Source of the DNA: Calocera cornea HHB12733
Lineage: Eukaryota > Basidiomycota > Dacrymycetes > Dacrymycetales > Dacrymycetaceae
Length of the DNA stretch: 64,000 nucleotides
NCBI GenBank assembly: GCA_001632435.1
Contig: KV424075.1
Location: 1 to 64,000 of the forward strand
Direction of reading: 5' to 3'
In this document: in pieces, positions 1-19,741 of the stretch
Layout of the letters: every line of letters begins with the position of its first letter
Numbering within the stretch: the stretch's first letter is position 1
The notes under the pieces: generated by a model
Told to the model about the DNA's origin: nothing
The model's input: only the letters and a program-made list of their open reading frames with translations
Databases searched by the model: none
Translations under genes and position numbers: made by a program

Positions 1-8
1 GGCCCGGG

Positions 9-143
9 AATGCGGCTCCGGCATGTTGAGAGGGCGTCAGGGATTGCCTGGGTGCACAGCCCCTCGGGGGCTCCGGGGATGCGGCTCCGGCATGTTGAGA
101 GGGCGTCAGGGTTTAGCCCTCGGCATGCAGCCCCAGTGGGGCC
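9..143. repeat. Two-copy ~69-bp GC-rich tandem repeat
   Basis: A block beginning TGCGGCTCCGGCATGTTGAG at about 11 recurs almost unchanged at about 80, a period of 69 bp. A third, diverged part of the unit follows near 120-140. The window starts inside this array, so its true copy number is unknown. It lies left of the first GGCCAGCC-type motif and may be outside, or at the very edge of, the transposon described below. Confidence 0.7.
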
Positions 144-1036
144 CAATAGTTGATGTTCAGGAAATATTAGGAGTGTCGTATATGAAAGTTGTAGGAGTGG
201 TGTGAATGGAATTCTGGGTAAGCAGGGCTTACACTTTCCTTTCCCCTTCTCGTCGAATACTTCTTCGACGTGAGAGTCCTTCGCCTCTTCTCTTGCCAGA
301 GCCTGCCACCGATAGTATTAGAAGCAGTTGCGGGATTCCAGCATATATTACGCACATCAATGTATTCGAACAGCCCCTGTAGGATTTTCTCCATTCGCCT
401 GGGACGTCGTCGCGTGGGCTCGCTCTTCCCAGACTTCCCTTGTGCAGCCAGGTTAACACGCTTATTCTCTTCCATATCGGCCAGCATGGCTTCCTGTCCG
501 ATCTGTCAGCCATCCGGCTGGCCCGCCGTTAGCAGAACTCCTTAGCCTCACCTGGAGGCGCGTGGCAAAGACGTCGACGGCAAGCGCCATCTCTTCCTGA
601 TATTCGCCGTTATCTCCGCCAGCAACAGTCTCTGCTGCCTCCCCTGCTTCTTCCAATCAGATCGGTTGCCATCGAAGAAGTCTGACCGCACCTTGTGCCG
701 CAGATACTCTGGCATCTTGCTGTTCGGACATCGTCTGTTCTCTGAGTTCTGATAAAGGGTGCTACTCAGCGGGGTTCCCTGCACGCGCCTTCTGCACGCG
801 GAAGGCCGGCCAGCCGGAAGCAATCTGTGCCCTGAAGCGCGTTCCCTCATAACGTCCGCGCCGTCGATTGCACGCATCTCCATCTCTCCTTCTTCCCCTC
901 TCCTCTGTACAACACATAGCATATATCCCCTGGGGCCGACTGGCCCCGTATATCAACCACACTTTCATTCCCCTCCCCGCTCTCCATTCCCATCCTCTCT
1001 CCCTCCCCATCTCTGGCAGCCAGCCGGCCGACCGTC
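144..1036. other. Non-coding left flank and upstream region of the first element gene
   Basis: No convincing coding sequence is visible. The stretch is AT-richer from 144 to 500. The dispersed GGCCAGCC-type motifs begin at about 516 and recur at 808 and 1018. An AT-rich CATATAT box near 920 sits about 115 bp before the start codon at 1037 and could act as a core promoter element (inference). The left boundary of the mobile element should lie here or beyond the window. Confidence 0.5.
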
Positions 1037-3402
1037 ATGCCACCCAGGTCTTTCAAACCGTCTCGCTTCACCCACCGACTCCGCTCCCAGACCGAGTCCG
1101 ACGGGCAGACTGACGACGCCCACGACAGCCAGCCGGCCGGTGGTGACAGTGAAGAAATGCCACCCCCGTCACCTCCTGCCCCGCCGCGTTCTCTGACGCG
1201 TGGGCATCCTCCCGCTCCCGCTGGTGGTGCTCCCATCCTGTACCCGGTCCCTGCATACACGTACCAGCTTCGTCCTCGTCCCTCTCGCCCTCCTTCTGCT
1301 ACCGACGAGCCGAGCGGTGCCTCCTCTCGCTTGCTGTCGACTTCGCGCCAACGTACCCACTCGAACCCCACGGGCGACAATGACCATCAAAGGCCGGCCA
1401 GCCGGCAGGACACCCCTCGGCCCCACGAGCGCCAACCCTCGCAGGATGTACCACGTCGGCCCACCCCCGCCAACAATCTCAACTCTCCCTACTCTGCTGG
1501 TGGTCACGCTGGTCAACGCACTGAGTGGGGCTTTCATCTGGCCGACGACACATCATCCGTCACTGGGACGACGACGGCCGCTGCGCGGCACTCTATGGCT
1601 CCTTCGGGCGCGGCTGGCCAGTCAGCTGATGGGTCGGCCCCTCCAGGCCCCAACCCTCCCACTCAACGATTGACTGTCCCCTGGCAGTTCACCTTGCAGG
1701 CGGACGCGGCCTCGACGACGGTGACGCAATCCACGGCCCGACCTAATCTGGCTACTCCCAAGCCCTCGGCCCGCCAGCCTGCCTCCCCCGCCCCGCCGAC
1801 GAACGCTGCTGCTACTGGTGATGGCTCCGTGCGCATGGTCAGCTTCGAAGAGTGGGATGTGCTCACGCGCGCCCGGCCGGCTGGCCCATGGTCCCTCGAT
1901 TGGTGGCCGGAAGGCCTCCCCTACACGCCGCCCGAGCAATGGGGCACCCGTCATTTCTGGTCCGGGGAGCTGCATCTCGACTGGAACGATCCCAACTCGG
2001 AGGACCCGTGGATCCCCTGCCCCCACTGCAAGAAGTCGCATTGGTTCATCTCGACGCAGAAGAACCCCGGAGCCAAGTTCTTCAGTAAGTTCACGTGCTT
2101 GTATGCCAGCCAGCCAGCCAGCCGTTAACTAACTGCCATTGCAGAGTGTCCCTTCAACAGGCATCCCGAGGACTGCAGGATGTTCAGTATGTACGGCCGG
2201 CCCGCCGCCTCATGCCTATGCTGACTATATGCGCCTTTTCCCGTAGGTTACGAGGGCCCTCTGCGCGCCGATGGCAAGATTAAGCTGGGGACTGTCTCCT
2301 TCCCGCCTGGGGAAGAGCCTGATCGTTATCCTCCGGCCAACCTGATTGTTCGTCCCCCGGAGCGCATCGATCCACGGATCGCATACATCCGTGATATGCG
2401 CAACCGCGAAAATCAACGGCGTTACAATGAGCTGCAAGAAACGTTCAGACAGGCCCGTCTTGAAGGTGAGCGCATCCGCGCTGAGCATGCTGCCCGGCAG
2501 GCCGGCCAGCCCGCTGGCCTACCTGTCGATCCCACCATCGGTCCCGAACACTACGACCCTGGCGAATCGCCCCTTCCCGTCCCCGTCGTTCAGTCGCCTC
2601 GCCAAATGGAGCCGCCCTCGCCCACGCCTGTTATCGCTCCCCGCTCAGCCCGCTACTCGGCTCCTGCACTCCGCCGCTCGAACACCGCCGCCTTTCGCAA
2701 CCAGGTTTCGGAGATCATGGGCGCTCCTTACCCCGTCGATACTTCTCAAGACCTTCGCCCAACGGCTGGCCAGCCGTCGCACCCACCCCAGCCCCAGGCA
2801 CAGGACATAGGCATGGACGTCGAGGACACACAGTCGCACACCCGCAAGCGTGTCGACAAAGGCAAAGGGAAAACGGCTGAGAAGCGTCCTGCGGAGGGAC
2901 AGCCAGAGGATGCGCCTCCCGCGCAGCGTCCACGCCAGGTATGTCTACTGTAGCCCCGGCTGGCTGGCTGGCCGTCGTGCTGATCGTTCTCCCAGGGCAC
3001 TTCCGACCGTTCGTCCGACCACGGTGCTCCTCCCACAACTCCCCGTGGGCCGCGATCCTGGCATGGTTCTCATACATGGCCCATCGGTGTGGTATGTTCC
3101 CTCTCTTCCCTTCTGCGGCCAGCCAGCTGACCGCTCTCTAGGCGCCGGATCCCGAATACGTGCGCCGTGATCTTGCGGCCCTGGCCTCCCTGCCCGGACC
3201 TGAAACCCGCCTCACCATGCTACACCTTGCAGCCAGTATCTTGGCCGACGCGAACGTCCTCCCTGAAGAGACTCGCGCTGCAGTCGAAGGTGCTCTCAAC
3301 CATGCGATTGACGAGGAGGGGCGACGTCTCCGTGAGGAGGCGGCGCGCCGCGAGTACGACGAGTGGGCTCAACGCAATCACCGCGCTCCGCCCCGTGAAT
3401 AA
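1037..3402 (+). CDS. Element-borne proline-rich protein with GRF-like zinc cluster
   Basis: Five exons (1037-2084, 2145-2186, 2247-2938, 2996-3091, 3142-3402) join in frame to 712 residues, with canonical GT-AG introns of 50-60 nt. Residues 1-300 are proline/serine-rich and look disordered. Around residues 328-360 there is a C-x2-C-x19-C-x8-C cluster with the context NPGAKFFKCP between the second and third cysteines. This strongly resembles the GRF zinc finger (family signature C-x2-C, then N-P-G-R-x-F, then C and C), a single-strand nucleic-acid binding fold. A basic Arg/Glu-rich helix follows, then a Lys-rich patch near residues 540-580, then a helical C-terminus. The invariant Arg of GRF is Ala here. 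A DNA-binding accessory role in transposition is inference. Confidence 0.7.
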
Positions 3403-4285
3403 ATGCTCTTCGACTGACGTTCGGCCGGCTGCCCCACTCTCTTCCCACCTTACCCTCCACATCTCGGCCGGCTGGCCTACCCTCTCTTACCATTCATTAC
3501 TTTCTCGCTATTCTTTTCCTCTGCACTAGGATGGTTCAAGCAGCAACAATTCCGGCTACAACAATCACCCGGACGGACGGCTGGCCCCAAACCATGACTC
3601 TCCTTTTCTTCGGCCCCAACGTATATACTCGCGCAGATGCGCATCTCTACTCTGATCAGCTGGATCTTCCTTCGTCCGCCGCACGACCCTTCCCCCAACC
3701 CTTGCTCAAATTGTTATCACCCATCGGCGGGCGTCGACTTCCACCTGTATCTCGTCTCGACTGCACTCACGACCGGCTGGCCAGCCGCACGATTTCCTCC
3801 GCCAACCCTTGCTCGAATGATTGCTCCACTATCGGCTGGCCAGCCATCATCTGTATCCACGAAAAGCCAACCCAAAAAAATCGTACCATTCCCCCCTCCC
3901 GTTGATGTATCGCCGGCTCGGCCGATGATGCTGCTGCTGCTGAAAGTCTGTGTTGCCGCTGAGTAGGGCAGTCGTATGTTGTTATTCTCATTACGCTCTG
4001 TGGGACACTCGTAGATAAGTACATCGGGTTCTCGTGTAGGATCGACTAGGTAGACCACAATCAAATATGTGAGCGGAATTTCGGCCAGCTGACCGGCCGA
4101 CCGGCAGGTGGAGGTAGGACGCGTAGCGCGACGCGCTTCGTGTATGTATACTCTCACGTGCGTGCACTGGAATGTCCCCATCCATTCGTAGTCTGCTTGC
4201 AGGCTACCCCCCTACATTCCGTCTGTTTCTGGCCGGTTCTTGAGTCTTGTCCTGTCGCAATCTCCTCTCAACAATCATATTCATC
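3403..4285. other. Spacer between element genes, motif-dense
   Basis: No plausible gene. The spacer carries at least seven copies of the GGCCAGCC-type motif (near 3422, 3467, 3579, 3776, 3834, 3912 and 4082), the closest packing in the element. It contains polypyrimidine-rich DNA and probably includes the terminator of the upstream gene and the promoter of the downstream one. Confidence 0.6.
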
Positions 4286-7200
4286 ATGGTGCTTGCCGAG
4301 TTGGGTATTAATCAAGACCTGGCTCCTGTGCGCGCGGCTACCAAGGTGTCGCGCCAGACGCAGCCGACTGCCTGCCAGCCGGCCGATAGCTCCTTGCCCC
4401 TTGACATCGGCTATGCCTTCCCAGCACGTACGCGCCATTGCGCTTCGCTACCAGGTGCCTCATGGTCTGAACTGCGTGTATACAGACTCGACGCCCCGTC
4501 ACGATGGAGCCGATGTGCCTCCCTCGCCTGCGGACCTTGGTGCGCCTTCTTTCCATCCTCCTTACCTCGATCTCTTATTGACTCATTAAACAGCTGGCCA
4601 GACGGCTGGCCAGCCAGCCCCGGCAGCCCCTGGGGCAGCGTCACAAGATATTCTTCACTACTGGAGGTCACACCACGACTCACCTCATGCTCGCTCCTTC
4701 GTTCCAGAAACACCTGGAGCCTGGCTGGGGGCTTCGATGTCCTCCTATGATGTCTCGACCGACATGATGCTTGAGGGTTTGCACTCCGACTCCTTCTCCA
4801 GCCTTCTGGCCGGCCAGCCTCTCCCACCTGGTGGCAACAACGCTAGTATTTCGGATGTGGCACGAATGATCACTGCGGACGATTTGGAATCTCTATTGCG
4901 TGATCTGCCCGTATCGCAAGACCGGGGATCGGACAGCAGCTACTCAGCATTCCTCAAGGATCTCCCGCCTCTTTTCGTCACACATGGGATGGCTGGCGAG
5001 GGTGGTGAATCGGGTCCGCCGGCTGGCCAGCCTGATGCTCCTTCTTCTCACTCAGAGCCGTCGCGGCCGGAAGGCCACGACATGGTCAACGCCGAGCCGT
5101 CCCGCGCCCATGCACCGCTGGTACCGGAATCGTCCTCAAGCGGATCAAGCCCGAACCTCGCCGCCTCTCACACCACGCCGGATCACAGCCCCGAATCTTC
5201 CTCCACCGGCAAGGGTGAATCTCCCTCTGCAGCGGCCCTAGTCGCCGCTGATGAGTCTGGCAACCCCTTTTGGGACCAGATCATGGAATCCAGCTTTGAA
5301 GATGACGACGAAGATGGGCAAGCGATCGCCGAAGCGTTCAAGAAGCGAGCCAAGATCATTTGCTCGACTTATTACAAGGATATGTTTGGTCATGCGAGCG
5401 GAGCCCTCCCTCCGGACAGCCGGACGGCCATCAAGTTCTGCCGGCAAATCACCCGGGGCTTAGTAGAGTTTCTTTGCCAGCACTACAACCTGCAGCAGCA
5501 ACGTGTCTGGAAGGAGATAGGTGCATTTGTAGGCTGGGCACGATCGATCAATGCATGGAACATGTTCCAACGGAAATGGAGAGACGAGTTGCCGAAAGGG
5601 CGTAAGTGGTTTCCTCCATTCGGGCGCTGTATCTGATGACGTGACTGGTAGAGCCATTCAACAGCGCGACTTGCCGGGCTGCCTATATCGAACAGGCAGC
5701 TCAAGATCCAGTTGAGCTCCATGCTCGTTTATCTGCGTGGCATGAGGCGCACATGGCCCCAGATGGTCGGGCCGTCCAGCCGGCTGAACGCCGCAAAATA
5801 ATGGCAGACTTGCTGAAATGTACTACTCATATGGTAGGGTCGCTGTCATTCTCGACATAAGGGACAGACGTACTGATAACTATATCAGTATTCTATGTAT
5901 GATCGATGTTGCGATATCGGCGCCCGGGTCGAGATTGGCTCTCTCCATCCTTTGGATGGAGCCGATATGTACCACGTCTACGAAACTAAGCGCATGCAAG
6001 GGGTACGCAGTTCTCCACTGGCCTGACAGTGGCAACAGCTAAGCGCCCTCCAGTATACAGAGGAAGCGTATCGACGAACCGCCGACGGTTGCAAGATTGC
6101 ATGGGTATACTTCACAGCGTATGGCCAGCCAGCCGGCCACCCACTCCTCAGTATGTTCCCACGCTCATTGAGACTGTAGGAAACAAGCGCATGGTCTAGC
6201 AAACAATCCCCCTCCAGAAGCTGTCGATCGCCGCCGCCCAGAGAATCTGAAGATCGCTCGCGAGGACATTCAGAGAACGGGCAAACGATTACTCCGTACG
6301 TGCTCCCGCTCTGATTTGTTACTGCTCCCGCTAACATCCAACGGCTCGGCTACTGTAGATGAAATGAAATTGCTGTCGGATCCTAACGCCGTCCAGCCGT
6401 CCAGCTGCCCATGGAGTGCCCGCTGGCTGCAGTTCGCCATGAAACACAAATGCACCATCCTTAACTGGCCGGCGGATGCGCCTTGGCCCCACGAGATTCG
6501 TAAACAGCTGCAGAATAGCGTCGAAGAAGAGCTCGTGCCCATCTGGCGCGCATTCACAACTCAGAATCCTGCGCTGGCTGTGCGTGTCGAGCTGTGGTCT
6601 AAAGGTGCGTGCTTCCCTGGGGTGCTTTCCTTCGGAGAGAGATATCTATTGACCTTGCTTGGCATTGCAGACGCGATACAGGATCCATTGAAGCACAATC
6701 CTCCCTTGATCGTACGGCCGGATGGCCAGCTGTGGACGTACCGAGATGAAGAACATCGATCGAGAGATTCAGATGATGATGATGCTGAGCATCACTCGGG
6801 CCCTCCGGCTAGTACAAGAAAGAAGCATGACGAAGAGGCCAGCCGCCCGGCCCAACGACCGAAAGCCAGGCATGCCGCGCGCAAGGCGCATCAGGCCATC
6901 ATTAACCCATCGCCTTCAGCCCTCGTGTCGCAGCCTGACGTCCCGCGCGGAGGAAATGGCGAGTTAGGGCCGGCTGGCCAAGCGGCAGAGCTTCAGAACG
7001 GGCTTCATTCCAATACATTGAAGCGCAAGATCTCCGATATTCTCGAATCACCGGAAGAGGATCTCCCGTCGGCACAGGAAGCTGCATTCGAGCAGGACAA
7101 CGGCGGTTGGCCAGCGCAGCGTACAGATGATCAACGGAAACCAGAACCCCCACGATCAAATCCATCACCTGCCGGGTTGCATCAGTCTCGCAGAGCACTG

Positions 7201-7824
7201 TCTCCGCCAGCCGGCCGCAATGAGCCCGGCACTTATCCGTGGCCGGCAAGGATCAATCAGAGTGATCTCGACACCGATCATGAGCAGCCTTACATTGGTC
7301 GAACGATGCCACAAGGTTGGGGACATGGGCCCCCCTACATCCGACATCGTGTGGAGTCGGCGCGCCCAGCAACAAGAGCTCCTTCTCCTTCTGCCGGCCG
7401 GCGGGCCGACCACACTGATCCTGTGCCGGTGTTCCCGGGTCAGGAACAGGAAGCGCTGCACGAGCGGCGCTACCCCCCGCCGCGTGATGCTCCGTCCATG
7501 CGAAGCCAGGGGCATGCCTATGACCACGATTGGTATGCTGCCAGCCGGCCAGCCTCTTCAGGAAGGATTGCCATTCCTCGGCCAGACGAAGGTGTAATCG
7601 CACCTTCCCATTATCAGGGAATGGGGTCGACCGACAACGGGCGATATTCGCAAATGACGGCCTACCCCCATGTCCAGTATCCATATCCCCCTCCTCGACC
7701 GATGCCCCCACCGACTGCAGAGGCATCTCCACGCCATCCGCCTCCCACCTGGACTCGGAATGTTTCCCCGACGCCCCAAGGGCGCTACTATGGTATTGCT
7801 ACAAGTAGAGGAGACCCTCGGTAG
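4286..7824 (+). CDS. Element-borne 1,050-residue protein, HMG-like Trp-rich segment
   Basis: Exons 4286-4345, 4425-4539, 4594-5601, 5652-5833, 5889-6002, 6039-6150, 6200-6295 and 6359-7824 join in frame to about 1,050 residues. One intron (6003-6038) would be only 36 nt, and an optional 66-nt in-frame intron lies at 6605-6670. The N-terminal ~340 residues are acidic and Ser/Pro-rich. Residues ~375-450 form a compact predicted helical segment with Asn-Ala-Trp-Asn-x-Phe and further conserved-looking Trp residues, reminiscent of HMG-box start regions. The C-terminal ~450 residues are basic, Pro/Arg-rich and disordered. I do not recognise a defined family. A chromatin- or DNA-binding passenger is the best guess. 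The frame survives eight exons, so the gene is probably functional. Confidence 0.6.
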
Positions 7825-9070
7825 GAGACGATGGAGTTGGGTATGATCTTGTGACCCGTTATTCTCGTAGTTTTTAAATGCAATGTCATCAAAATGTCCT
7901 TTGAGATGGCCAGCCGGCCTGCCAGCCACATCGCGGATTGATTGCTGCATGGATGTACTTCGCAGATGAGCCATTTGGCTGCGCACGTTCACCAAGTTGA
8001 GAGCAACACCTTGATTGCTCTACCATCAAGGTACCATTGGGACGCCCCGACCCATGAACGCTGTGCCCATCCATGACGATAATAGCTTGAACTCGGAACT
8101 TGTTTCAACTAGTTTGTGTCGGTTCTCTATAAGGTCCTCTGCCGCGACACAGCCGGCCAGCTGGCCCCATCACCCAGTGCTGGACCCATCGGATGGTTTC
8201 AGTTGTGCACGAACATCGCCAGTGTATTCGCTACCGTTGGTAATGGCTTTGTTCGACTGAACCCGGCCGGACGGCTCTGAACTCATCGCATCCTTGCGTA
8301 GAAAAGAGACCTCAGCATGGCAAACGTGTTATTGTTGCTTGGGCTGCAACAGGCTCCAATGCCTCCACTAATAGTTGAATCACTAGTGGGAAATACTGTA
8401 GTCTAACTGGCTGACACCTGTACTTCTCCCAAGCTCACTCCAACCTTCGCACTCGTTCCCTTTCCTAGCACATGTGTGATGACAACGCCTCCGAACCGAG
8501 CATCGGCAACCAGATTGAATCTGACCGAACCGCCCTTTAGCCAACATTGCATTACTCGGTGGCCAGCCGGCCAGCTGGCTGGCCATCATCAGATCCCAAT
8601 ATACAGAGAGAGTGCAAGTCGAGAGTACACCTGCTAGACATGCTTGACACCACCAACGCCTACTAATTGATCGGGCTCAATGACTATATTGTTAATGATC
8701 CTCTCGAGGACTTCCAACATGTGCTGGCTACGGACAGAATACTTGACACGACATATACTTCACGCAGTGCAGTCAATTACGGGTAGCAGATCACGGTTGG
8801 CTGGCCCGCCGTGGGCAAGTAGCTATAGAATGTGGGCAGCTTGAGCTCATAAGCCATGTTATCTGAGGCTCGTTTGCCTTTGAACAGCCACGGCGCATGT
8901 GGCCGCAGTTTCGGCACTTACTTCCACACACGATGAGGATGTATCCACAATCGTTCGCGGAACCACAATACATTGAATGTCTGAACATTGTTTTTCCCGG
9001 CAGGTTCGCTGGCCGGCCTGCCGATTTATAGTAGTTGTAACCTCGCAACTAAGAAATACGGCCCGGGACC
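7825..9070. other. Intergenic spacer within the element
   Basis: No supportable gene on either strand. The stretch is AT-richer than its surroundings but still carries GGCCAGCC-type motifs near 7910, 8153, 8265, 8563, 8798 and 9005. Their presence in non-coding DNA shows the motif is not a coding artefact. It separates two convergent genes (the plus-strand gene ending at 7824 and the minus-strand gene ending at 9071). Confidence 0.6.
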
Positions 9071-10165
9071 TTATTCAACCTCATTCCCTTCGACAGTCTC
9101 CCAGTCTGACTCCGGCCCCTCCAGTGCTGTCCCCATGTCCCATTCCACAGGTCCACCGCGGAATGATATCAGTTGAGCCAAAAGTAGACCAGGAAAGTCG
9201 TGCTCCATCCACTGATACCGGGTCAGCCCATGTGCTTCACCTACTTCGTACCAAGCTTGAACCAAAGGTGGGGTGAATCCGACCGGCGGTAGCATATGTG
9301 CTTCGTGGAACGAATACGGGGCCGAGGAGATCGGGACCACCAGATTGGTCAGGCGCTGAGTTTGCTCTTCCTTCCATGCTTCCAAGGCCAGCCGACCGGT
9401 AGTGCGAGGGTCGTGCAGCATACACACAACGTGAAGCTCGGGTATATAGACAAAGACCTGGCTGATCGCGGTAATCCATGTGCCTCTGCATAGTATTTCA
9501 CATCAGACATGGTGATTTGCCGGCCGGCCAGCCCGCGGAACGTACCGATAATACATCCCAGCGTGCTCCAGGTCGCAAAGCGCATTGGAAAATCCTGGGA
9601 ATCGACGTGGAGCCGGTCCACGAAGTCGCCCTTGTGTGATCAACATATGTCGTTGGAGAGCGGTGTAGACGAAGAACTCATTGTTCCAAGCATTCTGAAA
9701 GCCTTCAACGGGGACTGAGAATGCTTCTCCACAGAGGGAGATGGCGGGCGAAGGTACATGAGCCAGGCCGGAGCTCAATGACTGAGGGTTTCTGAACGGC
9801 CAGACCTCGCGTTCAGGTTGGCGCTGAGGACCGGTTCCAGTCGCACCGTATGTGAAAGAGAGGCTGGCCAGCCGTGCATCCGTCCACAAGACCTCTTCCT
9901 GCGTACGATCGTCCACCAAATACCAATCCCGTATAATGAGAAGGCGGAGCCACGTCTGTGGTTGCGATCCAAGAGGGAGCCATCTTGGGCTGTCACAATA
10001 TAGCTGGCCAGCCGGCTCAAAGTCGACTTGGGTACACGTCGGAGGGATCGTTGCTGAAGTGGTCATGGCAGACGATGCGACAGGTGAAGCTGGGGGGAGA
10101 TCGGCCTCCCTCTGCTTGGATATGAGCCCAACAGTGGCCAGCCGGCCGGCTGGCTGCTCCATCAT
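9071..10165 (-). CDS. Element-borne unknown protein, 344 aa, divergent from transposase
   Basis: Two exons on the minus strand (10165-9546 and 9485-9071), joined across a 60-nt GT-AG intron, give 344 residues in frame. The start is a Met-Met pair just 20 bp from a palindromic repeat array, with the transposase transcribed away on the other side. The protein is globular-looking, rich in Trp, Tyr and Phe, with an acidic C-terminus. Segments around GEAFSVPVEGFQNAWNNEFF and YIPELHVVCMLHDPRT look like folded core. I do not recognise a family. The HxD/H/Arg signature of TET/JBP dioxygenases, which are often linked to KDZ elements, was looked for and not seen. A regulator or accessory transposition factor is possible but unproven. 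Confidence 0.55.
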
Positions 10166-10183
10166 GCCTATAATGCGGAATGT

Positions 10184-10328
10184 CGCGCCAGATCTGGGCA
10201 TGGTGTGCCAGATCTGGTCATGGTGGACCAGATCTGGTCGCGGGTGACCAGATCTGGTCGCGGGTGACCACATCTGGTCGGACCCTGTCAATGTCAATGA
10301 GAGATGACAAGCACAACCAGATATGGTC
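10184..10328. promoter_or_regulatory. 20-bp-period CCAGATCTGG palindrome array in divergent promoter
   Basis: The hexamer AGATCT or a one-base variant, centred in the palindrome GACCAGATCTGGTC, starts at 10190, 10210, 10230, 10250 and 10270, exactly 20 bp apart. A sixth, diverged copy is at 10320. The best copies are perfect 14-bp palindromes. The array fills the ~125 bp between the start of the minus-strand gene (10165) and the likely transposase start (10291). This geometry suggests a multimeric operator or transposase-binding region shared by both genes (inference). If translation starts at the upstream ATG at 10180, the array would be partly coding. Confidence 0.6.
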
Positions 10329-13300
10329 ATGCCGTGCGTGCGTTGGGACCATAAGCGACAACCCGCTGTCCGGCGGTGATGGAAAGCACGCCCCCCAAAC
10401 TCCCGTTCATTCTCCAGCCAGCCGGCCCAACACGGTCGCCTCAACCTGGCGCACTTCCCCTTCCATGCCCAGCAGGCCATACACGTTCATTTCTAGAAAA
10501 CGACGACGTCCAATAGAGGATCCACTAGAAGCCAGTACTCCGCAAGAGGTGCCCCATAGAGCGCGGGAGGGGGACATCAAAAGACGGCGGGAGAAGGCGA
10601 TTAGGCCGGCTGGCCACACGCTCCCATCCTTGGAGCCTGGATCGCAGTACATTGGGGGAACCAGATTCGAAATTCCGGTCGAAACAAGTAGTCTCTATGC
10701 ACCCGAGAACGAAGAATGGGAGCAGGTGTGGGAAGACGTGGCTCCAGCAGCTCCGGCAGGCCAGCCAGCCCCCGGCGCACGCTATGCTGCTCAGAAAGCG
10801 CAGACATATCTTCGATGGCTAGCTGCTCTGCCTCAACTGCTCGATAGTCTTCGAGAGGTTTATGCGACCACGGATGGATTTAGAATTCCTCGTCCGTCCA
10901 TACAGGTCCAGAAATGTGATGAGCGTTGCCAAGGGGCTCGAGTGCATACTGTTGAGTGCGTGACATTCGAAGGTGCGCTGGCATTTTCCGGAGAAATGGT
11001 GGGTAGAATGCTGACAGCCGGCTGGCCACAGGTTGCGACCAACTGCAAATATCGTACTGCGATGAGCATCCTTTGGCTAGTAGCCTTGTTCTGGCTGGTG
11101 TTTGGCCGAGCACCCCTACGAAAGCGAAGATCGCATTCAGTCAAGGCCTGCTGCTGCACTATTTGCACTTGTACCGGACGTGCGCCACACCGCTGGATGC
11201 ATTCTGTGAAGGCTTGCGAAGGAAACACGGAGAGCATGGATGGTTCTATCGCGACTCTGTGAATGTGAGTAGTGCCCCGTGGGCCGGCCGGCCAGCTAGC
11301 TGATCCTGGCTGCCAGCGAGTGGTGTTGCGAGATCCATGGAGACGAAGCTTCGCGAGCGCCGCCCTTTGGTACGAATTGGTGGATGTAGAGTGGAACCGA
11401 CGCTTGCTGAAGATGATCGATGCCTATCACCTAGCCGAAGAGACGCAGCCGGCAGATGGGACAGAGGCAGCCAAGCCTAGGCAGCGAGGACGCGCATCAC
11501 ATCGATTGAGACGGTATTGTCCGGCATGCTTTGCGCAGGAAACGTGGGGTCAGCCGGCAGTCCAGTAAGTGGTGATTGCAAGGGAGCTCGACTGTCGAAC
11601 TGAAGTGCGGACTAGGGGGCCAGATGTGATCGTGTGCGCGGATGGGAACAGGCAGCTGCGCCGCTTCCGGGGGGGCGGGGAGAGCATCCCCGTGTATACC
11701 CCTGAAATCTTCATGACAACGGATGCGGTGGACGCTGTGGGCAGAGACATGGCTCGCTTGCGAGCCGGCCGGCCAGCCAATCATAGGGCAGCGCGTTTAA
11801 GCGCCGAGGCGCTGGAACGCTGCAAAAAGTCGTTCAAAGTCGCGGACGAGGAAGCCGCACTAGTGAACGAAAAGCTGTTCGATCCAACGGGAGTGGTTGT
11901 CTTGCTCTGTCGACACGATATCCCCCTCTTTGCCTGTGACATCACAACACCAGGTGAACAGCAGAAGTATGTCGTTGCAATGCTCTTGGAGCTCCTGAAA
12001 GAGCTGCCGGACCAAGCCACAGTCGGCCTACTGTACGATATTGGTTGCCAGCTGGATCACAGCTCCCGACTGGTAAGCAGCATGACAGGCCAGCCAGCCG
12101 GACGGCCTTGGGTAGACGGCTTATCAAGTATTTTCTAGTATGGTTATTTGGGAGAAGCATTCCCTCGAATCATCATGGGATGCAGCGTTCTACATGCATA
12201 TGGGCATGAATGGGCATGCCAAGTTGCATACCATCCACGTCGAAGAGATGGGTTTGGTCTGAGCGATGGAGAGGGGAGTGAAAGAGTATGGAGCCGCACT
12301 CGCCGGGAGATACCAATTCTGCGCCGGGCTGATGTACGTTACCTGGCTTGGTTGAACAGCGGCCAGCCGGCCGGAACGATACATATGCTAACGGCCGAAC
12401 AGAAGTCACGTCGTGTTATGGCACTGGATCGGAAATTTCGACATTGCGGTGACACCATGAAGGAGAATCTGGGGCGATGGTTCAACCAGAAGATGAAATT
12501 GCTTGCGCTTCATCGTCATCGTGCTGATCGGCTCATCCAAGACAGCGGACTGACAGAGCAAGAGCTTGCAGAGCAGCACCGACTTCAGGTGGAGCAGCCG
12601 CAATCCAGACAGTCCGGTGAGTGCGTTTGAGAGGTGGACGGCCGACCGGTCTAAGGGCTGGACAGAATCGGTGAAGGCCATCGAGGGCAAGATCGACATT
12701 TACAAGCGTTTGCAAAGCGAGATGCTCAGAGTGGAGACCATCATCAGAGAAGCCCAAGCCAGCATAATCCAGCTGCACGGCCGGACAGCCAACCGTGCCG
12801 CATTTGATGGACTCAATGACAGCCATGCGGAGCTAATGAAGAAGGGAGAACAGCTGTTTACAGAACTTCATATTGAGCAAGCTTTCCCAGAGTTTCGGGA
12901 TGTGTCAACCGTCTTCCTTCATTATCTTGTCCTGGCTAGGCAAGAGAAGATGAACATTCGCGAGCGCGTGATCGGACATATGTGGGAGTTAGCTCGTCTC
13001 CATCGTGCAAGAGGCGGGGGACGTGAACCGCTAGGTAAGCGCCCAGCTGGCCGGCCACGTGGAACAAATGTCCTCATGGGAACTCAGGGACTAAGCTTAG
13101 GGACCAGATCCTGCGAGGCTACGGGCCTCGTTGGAGTACGACTCAAGCGGCCATTCGGCGATATAATGGATATGTCGACTCGCTAGAGAAGCACTTCAAC
13201 CCTGCTTGGAACATCCCCCTTCCCTTGAAGCTCAATCCAGATAGCCTGGAGAGCCCGACCGAAGATCACCATTTATTGGACGACGTCTGGTGGCCGGCCG

Positions 13301-15832
13301 TCCAGCCACCCGCGGCGTGGGTGACGAACGAGGATGTGCGACATGGAGTGACTGGTTGGCTCTTGAGAGCCAGGTGCAATGAGGAGGAGAGAAGACTGGC
13401 ACGAGAAGCGGACAACGTGATGCGATGGTGGCAGGAAGAGAGGCAAGCGTTGAAAGATACCATTGCTCAATGTAGTGGTGCGTCTATTGCAGCCGGCTGG
13501 CCATCTGTCAGGCTCAATACTGTGATAGTGCAAGGCGATGTATTGCGCTTGCAACGTATGCAGATGCAACATACCCATATTCGGCAGAAATGGACGTGTC
13601 GCGCGCTTCCAGAAGTAAAGTGGAGGCGCGCGATCGTTATCGATCAGAAGCTGGCCAGCCCAGGGGTCAGCCCGAGCAGCGCAGACGGAGACCCTTTCAC
13701 GTTTCTTCCACCCCTCACCCCAGCTAGTCGGCGGTGGAACAACAACAACAACATACAGACGCCGAGTACAAGCATGGATCCAATCGAACTGGGAAGGATT
13801 GCTGCTGCGAGGACGCAGCGCTGGCTGCAAGACCAAACCCGCAACGCCCAGCCGGCCCCGCCGCCCTCCCCCCCACTGAGCGTACTGTCACCGCCTACTC
13901 CAGCCATGGCGACAGCCTCAGCATCGCCGTACCGTGTTCCACAGCTAGGTCCGAGCTATCAAGACTGGCCGGCCGGCCAGCCTGACCACGAGGACGCGAA
14001 CTGGGAAGAGGAGCTATCCGACAACTCCGATGCGTTCGATCGAGTGATGGGCGATGCAGACGTGGCAGTGGAGGAGCTGGGTGGCACGGTCATGGACAAT
14101 GCCGTGAGAGGGCAACGGAGGGGATTGTATGCTGAGGAGGAGGTGGAAGACGAAGATATGGAAGAGAAGGCTGATGAGAGGGTGACATACGGCCAGCCAG
14201 CCGACCCACGATCGCACTCAACGTCACCCCCATGGCCGCCTCCTGGGTCGTCACCCCCATGGCCGACGCACACGTCGCGAGACCGTTCGCGCTCACCGTC
14301 TCCTCCTTGGCCACCTGTACCAGCACCCGGGAACGTCACTGCACGGAGATATATTCCCATACCTGCGTTGCCGCCCATGACTGTCCCACCATATGTTACG
14401 AGCCCACCCTCTCGCGTGGCGACACCGGGTTGGCGACCTGTCCGGCTCGAAGCTCTGTTCCCCGATTCCGTCTTCGGTCCTGCAGTAACACCTGAGTTGG
14501 CCGGCCGGCCCGCGGCTCCTGGGGAGCAAGAGCAACACATGACCTCTGCGCTGCTACGACGCATAACACGTCCGAGGCCAATCTTCGCTGACCCTCTTCC
14601 TTCGCCGCGATCGCTCGAAAACCGCGTGTCGTGGGATGTTCCCGACCCGAGCGACCATCCGAGCCGACAGGACAAAGTCCAGGCTGCTGCTGATGTGATG
14701 GATGATGTGATGGACAAAAGGGAAGGGTCTGACGTCGAAGAGGAGGTGGTGTTTCTGGGGAGGGGAAAGAAGAGTCCAGACCGTGCCACGAAGAGAGGTG
14801 GGAGGCCGGCCAGCCGGCCTGCCACGAGTTCGGCTGAACTGGTGACCGACCCAATTGGCAGCAATCAAGGACAACAGCCGTCCGGTGGCAATCAAGTCCC
14901 CGACACGGATCCTATGCAATGGTTGGCGTCGTCTGTGAAGGATACACCTGCGCCCGCAAGCTGGGAGACAGTTCCCTACCGGTGCACGCGGCTTGGGACA
15001 GAGCGACTGACATTGGACAACAAAGCCCAGATGATTCTGTACAAGCACAACGAATGGATAGATGATCAAATCATCTCAGTCTTCGGCAAGCTTTTCGAGG
15101 AAGGCCAGCCATACGAGTGGTTTGAGAATGCGGCTCCAACCGGCCTGCCGGCTGTCCGCATACTCGATCCACACACGCTGACGGACCTTGCGTTTATCAA
15201 GGACGACCGAGGCAAACAGTTCTGGTTCGACAAGTACTTCGCTTACGCGATCCCGAAGGAGTCGCCAGCCGATGAGGTATGCGGTTCCACCTAACCTGGC
15301 GGCCAGCCAGCTGACCAGCCGATGTAGCAGAAGTACGATCGCCTGTACAGTTTCAGCCGGCCGATCTGGCTGTTGCCGCTGCATGACGCCCATAACTCTC
15401 ATTGGATCCTCGTCAAGGTGGATTTCGAGACGGAGACTATCTCGTTCTTGAACAGTCTCCGAGGGTGTGGCTCGCACAAAAAGTATCGAGAGGTAAAGCA
15501 CGTTGCATCCTGCTCTGGAGCATCCCTGATCCACGGGCAGTGGGTTCGAGATTGTATTGTGAAGGCACGCGAAGTAGCGGGTTTACCAAACCCCGGCTGG
15601 GCCGGCTGGCAGTACCGGGATGTTCAAGTACGTGCCCCGACGGTTCCAGATGAGGACATACTAACCAAAGGACTTGCAGGTGATACAACAGAACAATGGC
15701 TACGACTGTGGGGGATGGCTGATCATGAACGAGCTGAGCATATGTAAAGGATACCAGAGGAGTGGAGGGCCGAGCGCGTTTGCATTCCGACGGGCAATGT
15801 TCAACCTAGTGATGACCTGGGCGGCTGTATGA
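10291..15832 (+). CDS. KDZ transposase fused to a Ulp1-type (C48) cysteine protease
   Basis: Twelve exons (10291-10972, 11032-11264, 11317-11564, 11616-12072, 12139-12333, 12403-12616, 12666-13034, 13088-13477, 13529-15276, 15328-15492, 15541-15627, 15680-15832) keep one frame for 1,646 residues. Residues ~205-240 hold the Cys cluster typical of KDZ N-termini (C209, C213, C223, C229, C237). The RNase H-like core shows D397 in CADGN, D529 in YDIG, the signature LHAYGHEWACQVAYHPR and E585/E588 in SDGEGSER. After a ~700-residue Pro/acidic linker, a Ulp1 domain has H1537 (SHW), Q1600 and C1606 (QQNNGYDCG). N1554 sits where Asp is usual. In-frame ATGs at 10180 and 10465 are alternative starts. Two separate genes remain possible, with a second start near 13770, but the frame is continuous. 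Likely the mobilising enzyme. Confidence 0.85.
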
Positions 15833-16059
15833 AGAAAGGGTCCAGGGGATACATTCATAACTATGTGTTACAAGTGATTTGTGTGAACGATGGCGTGCGT
15901 AGCCAGCTGGCCGGCCGGCCGCACAGCAGAGGAACGTGGGACGGACGCCACGATAAGAAAGAGCGCGAAGGTCAAAGCCAAGGACGCTGCCGAACTTGCA
16001 ACCGCAACAGCGGCATGAGGTGGAGACAGATCTCGCTACCACGGCCGATCAGCCGGTGG

Positions 16060-16695
16060 GTTGCTTTGAGAGATGAACTCAGAGTGCTGCTGCACGATAT
16101 CCTTGATGCGCTTCTCCTCGAGATACTCGCGCCCCCCGGCTTGAGGCAGAGGCGGATCTGCGGACGACAGCCGGCCAACCGATGAGCTTGATGCGCTTCT
16201 CCTAGTGGTACTCGAGCTGGTCCTCCCTGAGAAAGAGGAGGATCTCGGTACCACGGCCGAGTGGTGGGTTGACGGTATCGTGGGTGATGGTGAAGGTGCC
16301 ACGGGCGGCGGACGCCCAGAGATATTGCTCGTCGTCGTTGTGCTTGGTGATGACCTGCACACGGTCCACAACAAGGTATGCCGAGTAGAAACCGACACCG
16401 AATTGGCCGATGCAGGAGACTTCGGCACCGACGGACATGGCCACCATGAACGCCTTGGTCCCAGAGTTTGTTATCGTGCCGAGGTTGTTCGCGAGTGCAG
16501 CCTTGACACTGCCGAGCCCGTGTCACGGATGGAGAAGGCCTTCTCCTTGTGAGGCCAGCCGGATGGCTGGCTTCCATAAACGCCTGGGTCCCAGACTTTG
16601 CGATCATGGTGAGGTTGCTCACGAGGTCGGCCTTGGTCATGTCGATACCCGTGTCACGGATTGAGCGAGTGTTGTCGCCCGTGTCGAGATTCGAG
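16060..16695 (-). pseudogene. Tandemly duplicated Hsp90 N-terminal fragments
   Basis: On the minus strand, pieces of the Hsp90 ATPase domain are recognisable. One copy (16695-16570) reads SIRDTGIDMTKADLV, then KSGTQAFMEA. A second copy of the same stretch, frameshifted at its start, continues through the Hsp90 signature [14 protein letters not shown] and [10 protein letters not shown] to DQLEY (16550-16205), where a stop codon follows. A third short piece repeats EYLEEKRIKDIV and HSEFIS (16135-16065). GGCCAGCC-type motifs sit exactly at the junctions, near 16555 and 16172. These are non-functional shards of a host gene, most likely captured by the element. The parent Hsp90 gene is not in the window. 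Confidence 0.8.
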
Positions 16696-17012
16696 GGGAG
16701 CGCGTCCTCCGTCCGACAGGATTGACGAAAGAAGTGATCTGGATAACACGGCCAAGTGGTTCGTGACGCAGCAGGTGTAGCCATTCGGTTCAAGCTGACG
16801 TAACGACCCGGGGCAGCCAGCCAGCCGGCAGGACGATGGCCGGGAATGACACCAATCACGCTCGCGAGGCGACCGGGCGAGTACGATCCGCAAGCGACGC
16901 GCGAGAACAGTGCCGCGAGCAAGACGGGACTGCGAGCACGCGTCGCTGCCGCGCAAGAGGGAGTAATCGGATGGCCAGCTGGCAGGGAGATGGGGCAGAC
17001 CCCCCATCAAGG

Positions 17013-17845
17013 ACAACGTGAAGAAGCACTCCGAGTTCACCTCCTAACCCATCCAGCTCGCCGTCACCAAGGAGGTCGAGAAGGAGGGCGAGGGCGATGA
17101 GGAGGCCAGGAGGACGAGGGCAAGATCGAAGAGGTCGATGACGAGGACAAGAAGAAGACCACGACGGTCAAGGAGAAGGTTGTCGAGAACGAGAGACTCA
17201 ACAACAAGACCAAGCACCTCGCGCCCGCGAATCGCTCGCGGGATAACGCCGGGCGAGTAGGGCTGGCCGGCCGTGGCGAGAGGGAGTGGTCGGACAGCCA
17301 GCCAGCAGGTAGCCCCACCACGACAAGGACATCATGAAGAAGCACTCCGAGTTCATCTCCTAGACCACCCAGCCCGCCGTCACCAAGGAGGTCGAGACGG
17401 GGTCAAGGACGATGAGGAGGCCAAGGAGGACAAGGCTAAGATCGAAGAGGTCGATGACGAGGACAAGAAGAAGACCAAGAGCGTCAAGGAGAAGGTTGTT
17501 GAGAACGAGGAGCTCAACAAGACCAAGCCGTTTCGCACTCGCAAGCCGCTCGCAAGCCGCTCGCACTCGCGAGCCGCCCGCGAGCAGAGAGCTGGCGGCC
17601 GTATACTTGACCGCGCTGCGGGAAGAGGGAACGGGAGGGCTGGCCAGCCATAGGAAGCCGAATCAGACGCAGCAGGGCCAAGAGCAGTCAACCGTCCAAG
17701 GTCGTTTCGAACGCAGCGAGCCAGCCGGCCATTCGTGAGAAGATCGAGAGGGAGGGTGAGTGAGGAGGAGGAGGCTGACGAGAACAAGGTGAAGACCGAG
17801 GTGGTGGACGAGGAGGACGAGAGGGAGGTGGGAGCTGCAAGTTGA
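17013..17845 (+). pseudogene. Repeated Hsp90 charged-linker fragments, opposite orientation
   Basis: On the plus strand, two ~215-bp copies (17013-17235 and 17325-17545) encode the Hsp90 stretch KKHSEF, then AVTKEVE, an acidic linker with KIEEVDDEDKKKT, then VKEKVVENE. Each carries a stop codon right after the KKHSEF piece and small frameshifts. A third, weaker copy of the acidic linker lies at ~17740-17845. GGCCAGCC-type motifs separate the copies (near 17265, 17292, 17640 and 17725). The linker follows the N-terminal domain in real Hsp90, yet here it is inverted relative to the 16.06-16.70 kb shards. An inversion or independent capture therefore took place. Arg-rich GC repeats near 17530-17580 are low-complexity filler. 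Confidence 0.8.
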
Positions 17846-17977
17846 CGAGGGGAGTGCTTGGCCGCGAGGGGGGGGGGAGGACCCTCTGGCGGTCAAACAC
17901 TGTGCAATAGCCGGTGAGGAGACGCGAGGAGGACGGATGGCCGGATGGCCGGCAGTGAGGGCATACGGCAGATCGGC

Positions 17978-18098
17978 GACCAGATGTGGCGAGAGAAGAT
18001 GACGCAAGACGGACGAGGGCCCAGATCTGGTCCACGTGCGGCCAGATCTGTTTTTGGTAAGTGGTCCGCAGGCGACCGCATCCCGGCCAGATCTGGTC
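17978..18098. repeat. CCAGATCTGG palindrome cluster at right edge of the element
   Basis: Four copies of the palindrome seen in the 10.2-kb array recur, with cores starting at 17982 (AGATGT variant), 18023, 18044 and 18089. Spacing is looser here, about 41, 21 and 45 bp. The cluster lies just past the last GGCCAGCC-type motif (~17937), where the character of the sequence changes. It may be a subterminal transposase-binding region marking the right end of the element. No matching cluster was seen near the left end. Confidence 0.55.
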
Positions 18099-18109
18099 GG
18101 GAAGGACCC

Positions 18110-19741
18110 CTAACAGGCCCGTCGCGCGCCCGCGACGAGAAACCCCTAATAGGTCCCATCGGTTGGCTGCCTAGGGTGGGAAGCTCCAGATATGCTGTTA
18201 TCACATGGCTGCTGCCCCGCGGAGGAAACCTTGGGGTGTCTTGATTGATTGATTCCGGATTCCAGAACGAACGTTGAAGTAGTTGCGGGCTGCGTGCGCG
18301 TATGTATGCCTGGCTTTCTCTCCTCCCGGTCTCGAGCATGCGGTTTTCCAAGCGGGAAATTGTGCGGATCAGCGATTCGCATCTCGCGCATGGCTTAATA
18401 GACCGCGGGCAAGATTGTCAAGGGCACACAGGCTGTCCGAATCGAACGAGAGCACACACCCGCATCTATGCGCCGCCCTGACTCACCCTCGTCTCTGGCC
18501 TTGGACCAGGAGCGTCGCCCTGGTAGAGCGTCCGCACTGGTAGTACCTGGCTGATCGCATGTGAATACGCTTCATGGCCTTTGGTTCTGCAGATTAGATA
18601 TTTCTCTCGGCTTCCGAGCTCGCCGAGTGTAACACCAGATGGGCCAAGGGGGTAACCCTGCCGACAAATTAAAAGCTGAGCCATTGTCGGAATAGTCAAC
18701 AGGTGTGGCTACGATTCTACGACTTTCTATACAGTACAAGTGATTAGGTGGTCTGGGGCCAAGGTCGGAGATTGTTGCCATGTTGGCTGGTGCTAAAAGC
18801 GTGCATGTACTGTATGCCAAACGGCTGAGCATGAGTTACGTGAGTGAAAACTCTGGCTCAAAGCTAATATATGGGCCAAGAGTTACCTGCTCCCACAGTA
18901 CTGGTACCTATGAGACCGAGTGGACTTGGTTACTATCCTGAATCGCCCTCCAGACGGATCGCGATACCCACTTGGAGCTTAGGAGCCATCCGAGAGAAAC
19001 CGACGTTGGACGCGGCTGCTGGACGGGGACGACCTCCATACACATTTGGGGGCAACCCAGGGAAACAAACGGTTTTCCCGGACAAGCATGCTATCCATTA
19101 GGACGACATTCGATGCCGGCGAGCGGTTGATCGAGGGGATCAGACAGAGCGATTGGTGGGATGGCGGCGACAAGACTCGGCCCACCGGAAAAGGTTGATG
19201 CGCTTGGTCAGAGCCTGGGTGGAAGGTCCCAGAACCTTGTTCTCGGCGAATAATACCCGGTCGCGGCCGAGAGAGGTACCCAGTTGAGACTGCGCAGCCG
19301 AGACCTGCGTCGGTTGTCCAAGTTCACCCGCAAGTCGCCATGTTTGTTGAAATATGCCGGGCTATTATCGCACGCTCAATCTGGAGAATGAGCCTTTGAC
19401 ACTGCCGAAGGGGAGAATCTGAGTTAGCCAGAAGAAGGAGATGTACGGGAAGGGGGGACAACTCAATTGTCCAACACGTGTTCGTGTTGTTTGATCTCCG
19501 AATGACTGCAAAAGAAGCGCGAGATACAGAAGGGCGGTGCCTCGTTGCCAACCCTACTTCGCGGAGTTTGAGAACATAAATATTTCACAGGAATGACTGT
19601 AAACAGGCTCCCGCCCGCCCGCCTGAGGGCTTTCTCAAACTCCCCCTCGAGCAGACGAGCCCATTTTCTAGCGTCACACTGGGTCACCGCTGCGGAGAAA
19701 AGTTGGAGTCGCAGTACTGGACGATTGAAGAACCAGCAGCT
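18110..19741. other. Intergenic region right of the element
   Basis: I see no supportable gene. The sequence lacks the dispersed GGCCAGCC motif. It includes a short GATT triplication near 18242 and an AT-richer part from 18560 to 18900. The distal ~250 bp should hold the promoter of the gene starting at 19742. Confidence 0.5.

What the first reader, a model, noticed from the sequence alone, without database searches (positions are those of the whole stretch)
516..17950. An evenly dispersed GGCCAGCC/GGCCGGCC palindrome marks an 18-kb element
Seen directly: about 80 short, imperfectly conserved GC palindromes (core GGCCAGCC or its complement, often extended to GGCCGGCCAGCCGGCC) occur across 0.5-17.95 kb in exons, introns, spacers and gene shards, and stop abruptly. 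By eye the mean spacing is about 220 bp with no gap much over 400 bp, more regular than random placement would give. This is not a tandem repeat, a MITE or a known terminal structure. It behaves like a dispersed address label comparable in logic to DNA-uptake or chi-like sequences. Inference: it may be a binding, methylation or nucleosome-phasing mark by which element-encoded proteins (GRF-like, Trp-rich, KDZ-Ulp1) recognise the whole element and its cargo. I know of no described fungal system like this.
Basis: partly seen in the sequence, partly recalled or inferred. Interest (0 to 1): 0.92.

Follow-up and report, generated by a model that had tools for sequence, protein, structure and literature searches.

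The report
Fungal transposons barcoded by dispersed palindromes
In one fungus, several families of large jumping genes carry, spread through their length and even inside their genes, a short mirror-image DNA word that differs from family to family and appears to be kept by selection, as if each family marked its own DNA so that one of its proteins can recognise it.

Summary
The window (Calocera cornea HHB12733; Dacrymycetes) holds a KDZ DNA transposon with 71 palindromic GGCYRGCC-type sites at 516-17730. GGCCAGCC/GGCTGGCC occurs 52 times, against a mean of 1.4 in shuffles and 3 in the other 46 kb. Density is similar in genes and spacers, captured HSP90 shards have sites at their edges, spacing is more regular than random, and sites stop before the terminal inverted repeat. 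A complete sister copy (18,511 bp, 140-bp TIRs, 8-bp TSD) shows the same. Seven copies, 62-83% identical, keep the positions (67-100% against about 20% by chance) and the GC core, but not the exact letters. In one dead fragment the core's excess conservation is gone.

Other KDZ families here carry different dispersed palindromes over all the element DNA read (TCATGA/TGATCA, TCYRGA, TAGnnCTA, CGKMCG). One is a collinear sister that keeps the presumed TIR-type motif but lacks this label. Three families avoid sites with two weak half-sites, which points to a dimeric reader.

Best reading: a family-specific cis-label read by an element-encoded dimer, probably for anti-silencing, like Arabidopsis VANDAL/VANC but spread through exons too. 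Reader and function are inferred. My searches of open papers found no such report.

The parts
1..18178 (+). KDZ transposon copy; the 5' end is missing at the contig start, the 3' end is the TIR
   Evidence: Collinear with the complete copy C42:11880-30390
516..17730 (.). 71 dispersed RGCY-grammar palindromic sites (core GCYRGC, YR = CG, CA or TG)
18012..18178 (-). 3' terminal inverted repeat, free of the dispersed motif, with CCAGATCTGG at 18021 and 18087
   Evidence: 82.8% identity over 169 bp to the C42 TIR region; 0 sites
10188..10257 (.). cluster of four CCAGATCTGG palindromes in the spacer between the divergent minus-strand gene and the KDZ gene; presumed transposase/promoter motif, distinct from the dispersed label
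1037..3402 (+). gene 1, about, spliced; GRF-type zinc finger encoded at about 2010-2190
   Evidence: spliced exon translation hits PF06839 at E 0.0041, 17.6 bits, below the cut-off of 25.9
4286..7824 (+). gene 2, about; protein with a nearly invariant region of about 85 aa, candidate label reader (inference)
   Evidence: no Pfam or PDB match
9072..10067 (-). gene 3, about; unknown function, similar sequence in C42 and in the CGKMCG sister element
10465..15832 (+). KDZ transposase region (PF18758 at 11623-12330) followed by a Ulp1-type peptidase (annotated protein P0001 spans 12457-15829)
   Evidence: the start at 10465 is my reading of the sequence
16016..17901 (.). captured shards of the host HSP90 gene, 75-90% identical to C9:231901-233000, with label sites at shard edges and in the linkers

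Best explanation
Shown: most of the KDZ transposon loci read in this genome carry a short palindromic word of their family, dispersed over the part of the element examined. In the GGCYRGCC family, where compartments were examined, it lies in exons, introns, spacers and beside captured cargo but not in the TIR. In the two families with several diverged copies (GGCYRGCC, TCATGA/TGATCA), word presence and position are kept while the exact letters drift. Inferred: the word is the binding site of a dimeric DNA-binding protein encoded by the same family (best candidate in the window: gene 2, 4286-7824). This protein coats the element from end to end and keeps it active against host silencing, a sequence-specific anti-silencing label as in VANDAL/VANC of Arabidopsis. 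Even density would be needed because the effect acts locally. A family-specific word limits the effect to its own kind and spares host genes. The Ulp1 domain fused behind KDZ could be an effector (deSUMOylation); this is speculation.
For: (1) Family specificity: gapped-palindrome scan of whole or partial elements: GGCnnGCC 88 against 13.7 expected (window, 1e-40), 78/14.8 (C42), TCATGA 54/7.5 (C81), TCCGGA 38/5.4 (C35), TAGnnCTA 40/1.9 (C103); six controls best 1e-4. The 14-mer CATGATCATGATCA of the second family has 117 matches genome-wide (both strands; neighbouring ones overlap) against 5 for the reversed control, and 96 of the 100 listed rows lie in five KDZ loci. (2) Boundaries: motif density drops at both edges of the C35 element and at the one edge read of C103, C81 and C42 (other edge of C42). 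(3) Selection: conserved positions in 7 and 4 copies, no circular shift of 500 reaching the observed value in any pair; core kept 0.827 against 0.649 for control GC dinucleotides; second family 0.887 against 0.751. In a truncated relic the excess is gone: 49/76 against 217/362, while the live pair has 67/76 against 270/385, p = 0.0005. (4) Dimer logic: weak-weak sites avoided, 10 against 54.6 expected (p 4e-23), 2 against 13.3, and 0 against 3.6 in three families with different letters. (5) DNA level: all three reading phases in exons; introns and spacers included. (6) Decoupled from the presumed end motif: the collinear sister element C3 shares CCAGATCTGG and genes 2, 3 and KDZ, but 0 of its 28 words have a counterpart in the window copy and 2 of 36 the other way. 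(7) Elements of the GGCYRGCC, TCATGA, TCYRGA and TAGnnCTA families show little CpG decay (0.83-1.00), while a retroelement and one of two Plavaka loci do (0.69, 0.58).
Against: No protein-DNA binding, methylation or expression data. KDZ loci with no label (CpG o/e 0.90-1.10) are not CpG-decayed either, so item 7 does not discriminate; the second Plavaka locus is also little decayed (0.82), and the two other word-bearing KDZ families (TGCnGCA, GCAnTGC) are decayed (0.45-0.76; doubtful L022 0.16). 8 of 29 KDZ loci read show no clear label, so it is not needed by every KDZ element. In the relic whole sites are still found near the old place in 7 of 13 and 6 of 10 cases (live pair 9 of 13 and 9 of 10), so the contrast rests on the core letters and is small in number. 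The structure model of gene 2 is worthless (mean pLDDT 36). In L007 the half-site rule fails (5 against 5.9), and the TC context outside the elements also shows some depletion of TA (2 against 6.4, p 0.002). The spacing is not regular in C35, L003 and L007. The copy-to-copy comparisons are not independent of each other. One species only.
Confidence: 0.5

Rival explanations
1. The label serves transposition: the transposase or an accessory protein coats and compacts the long element (about 10-18 kb) so that both ends meet, or marks it as a substrate.
For: Long elements; similar density throughout; KDZ protein encoded by the element; in the window copy the TIR is the only compartment without sites.
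Against: The TIR and the spacer before the KDZ gene carry a different palindrome (CCAGATCTGG) that the sister element with another label shares, so the presumed transposase site is decoupled from the label. KDZ elements without a clear label exist.
Confidence: 0.17
2. The words bind host factors (transcription, replication, nuclear positioning or repair), which the elements exploit.
For: Palindromes could fit host dimeric factors; dispersed binding sites could open chromatin. Inference only.
Against: Several unrelated words in one host; a sister element has changed the word completely; the long forms of two words are rare outside these elements.
Confidence: 0.12
3. Self/non-self marking: a family-encoded modifying enzyme or nuclease uses the palindromes to distinguish its own DNA from competitors or from unlabelled DNA, restriction-modification-like.
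For: Short palindromes like type II sites (recalled resemblance); family specificity.
Against: No methylase or nuclease domain found by Pfam in the ORFs scanned, which were read exon by exon and not for every element; restriction logic normally selects for avoidance, not enrichment.
Confidence: 0.08
4. RNA-level function: the words act in transcripts.
For: On the element's plus strand CA outnumbers TG (71 to 42 in the window, 83 to 36 in C42).
Against: Similar density in spacers, in genes and over the minus-strand gene; both strands' forms are accepted. Which stretches are transcribed is not known here.
Confidence: 0.07
5. No function: mutational spread (slippage of 4-bp or 6-bp units, insertion at junctions, CpG decay).
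For: Long slippage-like runs exist (C42 13338; C64); some sites sit at junctions of captured HSP90 shards; the TGCnGCA and GCAnTGC families lie in CpG-decayed DNA.
Against: Core conservation above control in live copies, absent in the dead fragment; half-site rule; regular spacing in three families; family confinement.
Confidence: 0.06

Closest known systems
VANDAL transposons and VANC anti-silencing proteins of Arabidopsis (PMC5735166, PMC10398659; passages seen)
   Same: Short family-specific motif at high density inside the element, different in related families; element-encoded protein reads it; effect extends over the whole element.
   Different: MULE, not KDZ; there the motifs lie in tandem arrays of noncoding regions in one orientation, and the two coding-region probes tested lack the motif; here they are palindromic and dispersed through exons, introns and spacers. 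No reader or effect is shown here.
KDZ (Kyakuja-Dileera-Zisupton) transposons of fungi, e.g. KDZ1-3 of Cryptococcus (PMC12810828, passages) and TET/JBP-bearing transposon lineages including the KDZ group (PMC12730594, passages)
   Same: KDZ transposase, TIRs of more than 100 bp, 8-bp TSD (4-8 bp in KDZ2 and KDZ3); about 9-11 kb there, 18.5 kb here.
   Different: In the passages that I retrieved from those two papers no dispersed internal palindromes are described. No TET/JBP gene was seen in the labelled elements; the genome search gave only 2 sub-threshold hits, on C49 and C100.
DNA uptake sequences, Chi and similar genome labels of bacteria (recalled)
   Same: Short dispersed word that labels DNA as self.
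   Different: Those label a genome, not one transposon family, and are not palindromic pairs of half-sites; eukaryotic setting here.
Subterminal transposase-binding repeats of CACTA and hAT elements (recalled)
   Same: Short repeated word bound by an element protein.
   Different: Those cluster near the ends; here the label covers the interior and is absent from the TIR.

Membership tests
KDZ transposons | KDZ transposase domain | tested here: met
   PF18758 E 6.8e-24 and 1.8e-14 on two window ORFs; 137.1 bits in the genome search, the match read through one stop codon
KDZ transposons | TIRs and 8-bp target site duplication | tested here: met
   Sister copy C42: 140-bp TIRs 100% identical and TSD TAGTTGCC. 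The window copy lacks its 5' end; its 3' TIR is present. A TIR search in the C35, C81 and C103 stretches gave no TIR pair
KDZ transposons | CxC zinc cluster before the KDZ domain | tested here: inconclusive
   No CxC hit in the ORFs scanned, read exon by exon; C. viscosa relative P0010 has CxC1 at 25 bits, under the cut-off of 26.9
VANDAL/VANC-type anti-silencing system | family-specific short motif concentrated in the element | tested here: met
VANDAL/VANC-type anti-silencing system | MULE-type element | tested here: not met
   KDZ domain and 8-bp TSD; no MULE model was searched for in the genome
VANDAL/VANC-type anti-silencing system | motifs as tandem arrays in noncoding DNA | tested here: not met
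   Similar density in genes and spacers (2.9-6.8 per kb), 10 of 13 sites of the P0001 gene in exons
VANDAL/VANC-type anti-silencing system | protein that binds the motif and removes silencing | not testable with these tools
   needs DAP-seq, ChIP and methylation maps
   no VANC sequence was compared; Pfam gives nothing for gene 2
Tandem repeat or MITE | adjacent copies or terminal inverted repeat units | tested here: not met
   Mean spacing 246 bp, unrelated flanks, 8-28 bp sites

The most novel reading that the evidence does not exclude
Fungal KDZ transposon families carry a general whole-element cis-code: each family writes its own palindromic word about every 85-370 bp through genes, introns and captured host DNA, a family-encoded dimer reads it, and word and reader switch together when families split. 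This would be a eukaryotic self-address system for mobile DNA, possibly extending to Plavaka elements.
Probability: 0.4. Interest if true: 0.94.

Novelty: new variant of a known kind. Interest (0 to 1): 0.88.

Why it matters
How large transposons tell their own DNA from the host's and escape silencing is known in motif-level detail, as far as I know, mainly from VANDAL elements in Arabidopsis. Here one genome offers several families with different words, a collinear sister element in which the word differs, and a dead copy as a neutral control, so motif-reader co-evolution becomes directly testable. It also means that protein sequences of these elements are partly dictated by a DNA-level label: the word is read in all three phases inside exons.

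Tried and rejected
Rejected as explanation: chance or composition; common host word; tandem array. Nucleosome phasing as the general account is disfavoured by family-to-family spacing differences.

Weak or negative: the ACGT-type words of L016 and L018-L021 are little above controls and not clearly better conserved than control words; I do not count them, and L017 has no word. L005 and L006 have none. L016 and L018 (1e-5.3, 1e-5.4) do not exceed the best of 37 overlapping chunks of unrelated window DNA (TGTACA, 1e-5.9); neither do L022 (1e-5.0) and, by this scan alone, L023 (1e-5.3), which is a G-family copy by its 14 RGCY sites. The TGCnGCA and GCAnTGC families lie in CpG-decayed DNA and may be inflated. 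One of two Plavaka loci has CTGnCAG 15 against 1.9, 14 of the 15 outside the stretch that matches the transposase model, so perhaps subterminal; the other has nothing clear, nor has the retroelement locus or the two TET/JBP-like loci. One control chunk that seemed positive (GWCGWC) is a GAC run. CGKMCG words of the C3 element do not sit at the places of the window's words (9 of 28 within 20 columns, 6.0 expected, P 0.13).

Led nowhere: peptide footprints could not be used (123 proteins held, those of 300 aa or more scored; even P0001 scored low); viral-contig scans found no relatives; PDB searches of genes 2 and 1 gave nothing better than E 0.93 and 0.25; AlphaFold of gene 2; TIR search by script in C35, C81, C103; the pattern TCTAGAGCTCTAGA was a poor choice, 4 against 4 in control. 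One search stopped with an error at its TAGnnCTA control (none of the four forms occurs there); the spacing part was redone, the CGnnCG control was not run.

Not checked: C79, one of 31 KDZ loci, was not read; C13:273824 was judged from pattern places only. The place lists are capped (100 rows).
Full report
What is there. The window is contig C162 (68,282 bp) of a 32.1-Mb, 302-contig genome. A database protein 98% identical over 97% of a window ORF, on a contig of the same length, names it Calocera cornea HHB12733 (lineage). Bases 1-18178 are a KDZ DNA transposon whose 5' end is cut off by the contig start. The KDZ domain lies at 11623-12330 and a Ulp1-type peptidase follows (P0001, E 5.4e-9). 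Three further genes (about 1037-3402, 4286-7824 and, on the minus strand, 9072-10067) have no Pfam match over cut-off in the pieces scanned; gene 1 has a sub-threshold GRF zinc finger. A sister copy on C42 is complete: 11880-30390, 18,511 bp, 140-bp TIRs without a mismatch, 8-bp TSD TAGTTGCC. It is collinear with the window copy.

The observation. GGCCAGCC/GGCTGGCC occurs 52 times in 18 kb, 3 times in the remaining 46 kb, and 1.4 times (maximum 5) in 200 shuffles. Merged into sites there are 71, at 516-17730. Density is 2.9-6.8 per kb in every gene and spacer and 0 in the TIR. In the annotated gene P0001, 10 sites fall in 3,069 exon bases and 3 in 304 intron bases (3 of its 6 introns). The 10 exonic sites are read in all three phases. 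Spacing is more regular than random in both copies (0 of 5000 simulations).

Grammar. The sites are runs of RGCY units; the core is GC-YR-GC. Over seven copies (two long, five of 3.4-3.7 kb) the junction is CG 183, CA 235, TG 110, TA 10, against 54.6 TA expected if the two sides were independent (p 4e-23). The same rule, at least one strong half-site, holds with other letters in TCYRGA (CG 38, CA 38, TG 36, TA 2; expected 13.3) and in TAGnnCTA (AT 10, CT 15, AG 8, CG 0; expected 3.6, p 0.003), but not in CGKMCG (5 against 5.9). Outside the element the GC context shows no such avoidance (8 against 9.3); the TC context shows some (2 against 6.4, p 0.002). I read this as the footprint of a dimer that tolerates one poor half-site.

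Selection. Seven copies of this family are 62-83% identical around KDZ. Their sites coincide within 15 columns in 67-100% of cases, depending on the pair, against 16-23% expected, and none of 500 circular shifts reaches the observed value in any pair; the second family's four copies give 57-100% against 14-20%. GC core letters are kept in 2977 of 3600 comparisons (0.827) against 0.649 for GC dinucleotides outside sites and 0.57 for flanking G/C. The YR letters change as freely as flanking ones (0.607 identical) but stay pyrimidine or purine in 0.90. These comparisons use all ordered pairs and are not independent. In the second family site letters are kept in 1525 of 1719 (0.887) against 0.751 for matched words. 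A truncated fragment on C13 (about 313.3-316.4 kb) that covers only the 3' part of the element serves as a natural control: there core letters are kept no better than control letters (49/76 against 217/362, p 0.27; 36/61 against 234/385, p 0.66), whereas the window and C42 copies over the same region keep 67/76 and 54/61 against 270/385 and 288/414 (p 0.0005 and 0.0009). Whole sites near the old place survive in the relic in 7 of 13 and 6 of 10, in the live pair in 9 of 13 and 9 of 10. Numbers are small, from one relic.

Other families. One search finds KDZ matches at 31 loci by my count; I read DNA of 29 (28 from L003-L028, L031 and L032, plus C42). Twenty carry a clear word: GGCYRGCC in 7; TCATGA/TGATCA in 4 (a fifth, C13:273824, by pattern places only); TAGnnCTA in 2; TCYRGA in 1; CGKMCG in 1; TGCnGCA in 3; GCAnTGC in 2; a further locus (L022) is doubtful, and 8 show none or only weak words. 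Some of these are near-identical pairs (L011/L012 99.97%, L014/L015 99.8%, L004/L008 99%), so they are not independent. The TGCnGCA and GCAnTGC words lie in CpG-decayed DNA and are the least certain. Probabilities for long stretches are 1e-19 to 1e-40 in five elements against 1e-4 at best in six control stretches. The word stops at both edges of C35 and at the one edge read of C103, C81 and C42 (C42's other edge). The 14-mer CATGATCATGATCA has 117 matches in the genome against 5 for the reversed control; of the 100 rows listed, 96 lie in five KDZ loci and 4 at three other places. Regular spacing also holds in C103 (CV 0.40, 0 of 3000) and C81 (0.59, P 0.009), not in C35, L003 or L007.

A word switch. 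The C3 element shares with the window copy the order of gene 2, gene 3 and KDZ, with 33-67% protein identity in the coding-frame pieces matched, and the CCAGATCTGG palindromes found in the window's TIR and in the spacer before its KDZ gene (4 half-matches in L007). Yet its dispersed word is CGKMCG, seen throughout the 7.4 kb read; 0 of 28 of its words have a counterpart in the window copy and 2 of 36 the other way. So the label differs while gene order and the presumed transposase motif are shared. This argues that something other than the end-binding function reads the label.

Cargo. The tail 16016-17901 contains shards of the host HSP90 gene (79-90% identical over the five longer blocks; host copy C9). 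The 1.1 kb of host gene read has one RGCY word; the tail (15834-17900) has nine sites, at shard edges, in the linkers between shards or just before the first shard. At 16553 the site can be aligned to host sequence with a 2-base gap and a substitution, so that site may have arisen after capture. Whether sites were gained or shards were placed between them is open. HSP90 fragments also lie near two other copies (C64, C61).

Who reads it. Gene 2 products from three copies (44-46% identical to P0125 overall) are almost invariant over about 85 residues in the C-terminal part of the annotated products, which is what one expects of a reader of a fixed word. There is no domain match and no usable structure, so this is a candidate only. 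No relative outside C. cornea was found by one search, in which only the 7,992 candidates sharing most words were scored (2 proteins).

Silencing. The genome has cytosine-methylase matches at C104 (48 bits) and, weaker, C177, and shows CpG loss with TpG/CpA excess in a retroelement, one of two Plavaka loci and some KDZ copies (down to 0.16), but little in the families with the best labels (0.83-1.02). This fits escape from methylation but does not prove it, since unlabelled KDZ loci are not decayed either.

Known systems. VANC proteins bind short family-specific motifs in noncoding tandem arrays of VANDAL elements, and their effect spreads over the element (PMC5735166, PMC10398659: passages). 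The logic fits; the architecture differs. KDZ elements with TIRs over 100 bp and 8-bp (or 4-8 bp) TSDs are known (PMC12810828, passages; PMC12730594, passages). Searches of the open paper library listed nothing that I recognised as this pattern; that library lacks most subscription papers, and I did not read the 2014 PNAS paper on KDZ elements (recalled).

Limits. One genome; about 252 kb of it fetched besides the window, in part overlapping (my sum over L001-L063); no second species at DNA level; no experiment. The step from label to anti-silencing is inference by analogy.

Noticed in passing
window 10188-10257 and 18021-18096; L009, L013, L023-L026, L007: A second palindrome, CCAGATCTGG (or its half CCAGATCT), clusters in the TIR and in the spacer before the KDZ gene; probably the transposase or promoter site.
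   Followed up: partly
window 16016-17901; C64:134626-135221, C61:52588-52785: Captured shards of host HSP90 in or beside several copies of the family.
   Followed up: partly
L060 (C91:82001-85000): A Plavaka transposon locus has AACTGTCAGC-type words (CTGnCAG 15 against 1.9), mostly outside the transposase core; a second Plavaka locus has nothing clear.
   Followed up: partly
L004, L008, L022, L060, L061: CpG loss (o/e 0.16-0.69) with TpG/CpA excess in some transposons, as expected from cytosine methylation.
   Followed up: partly
L011/L012, L005/L006, L014/L015, L020/L021: Near-identical KDZ loci on different contigs (99.3-99.97%): recent copies or separately assembled haplotypes.
   Followed up: no
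L057 (C13:313.3-316.4 kb): Truncated 3' fragment of the GGCYRGCC family, used as neutral control.
   Followed up: yes
window 54682-54705 and 55495-55518: GAC tandem runs that mimic a GWCGWC enrichment.
   Followed up: yes
window 18500-30000: TGTACA 7 against 1.2 expected outside the element, unexplained.
   Followed up: no
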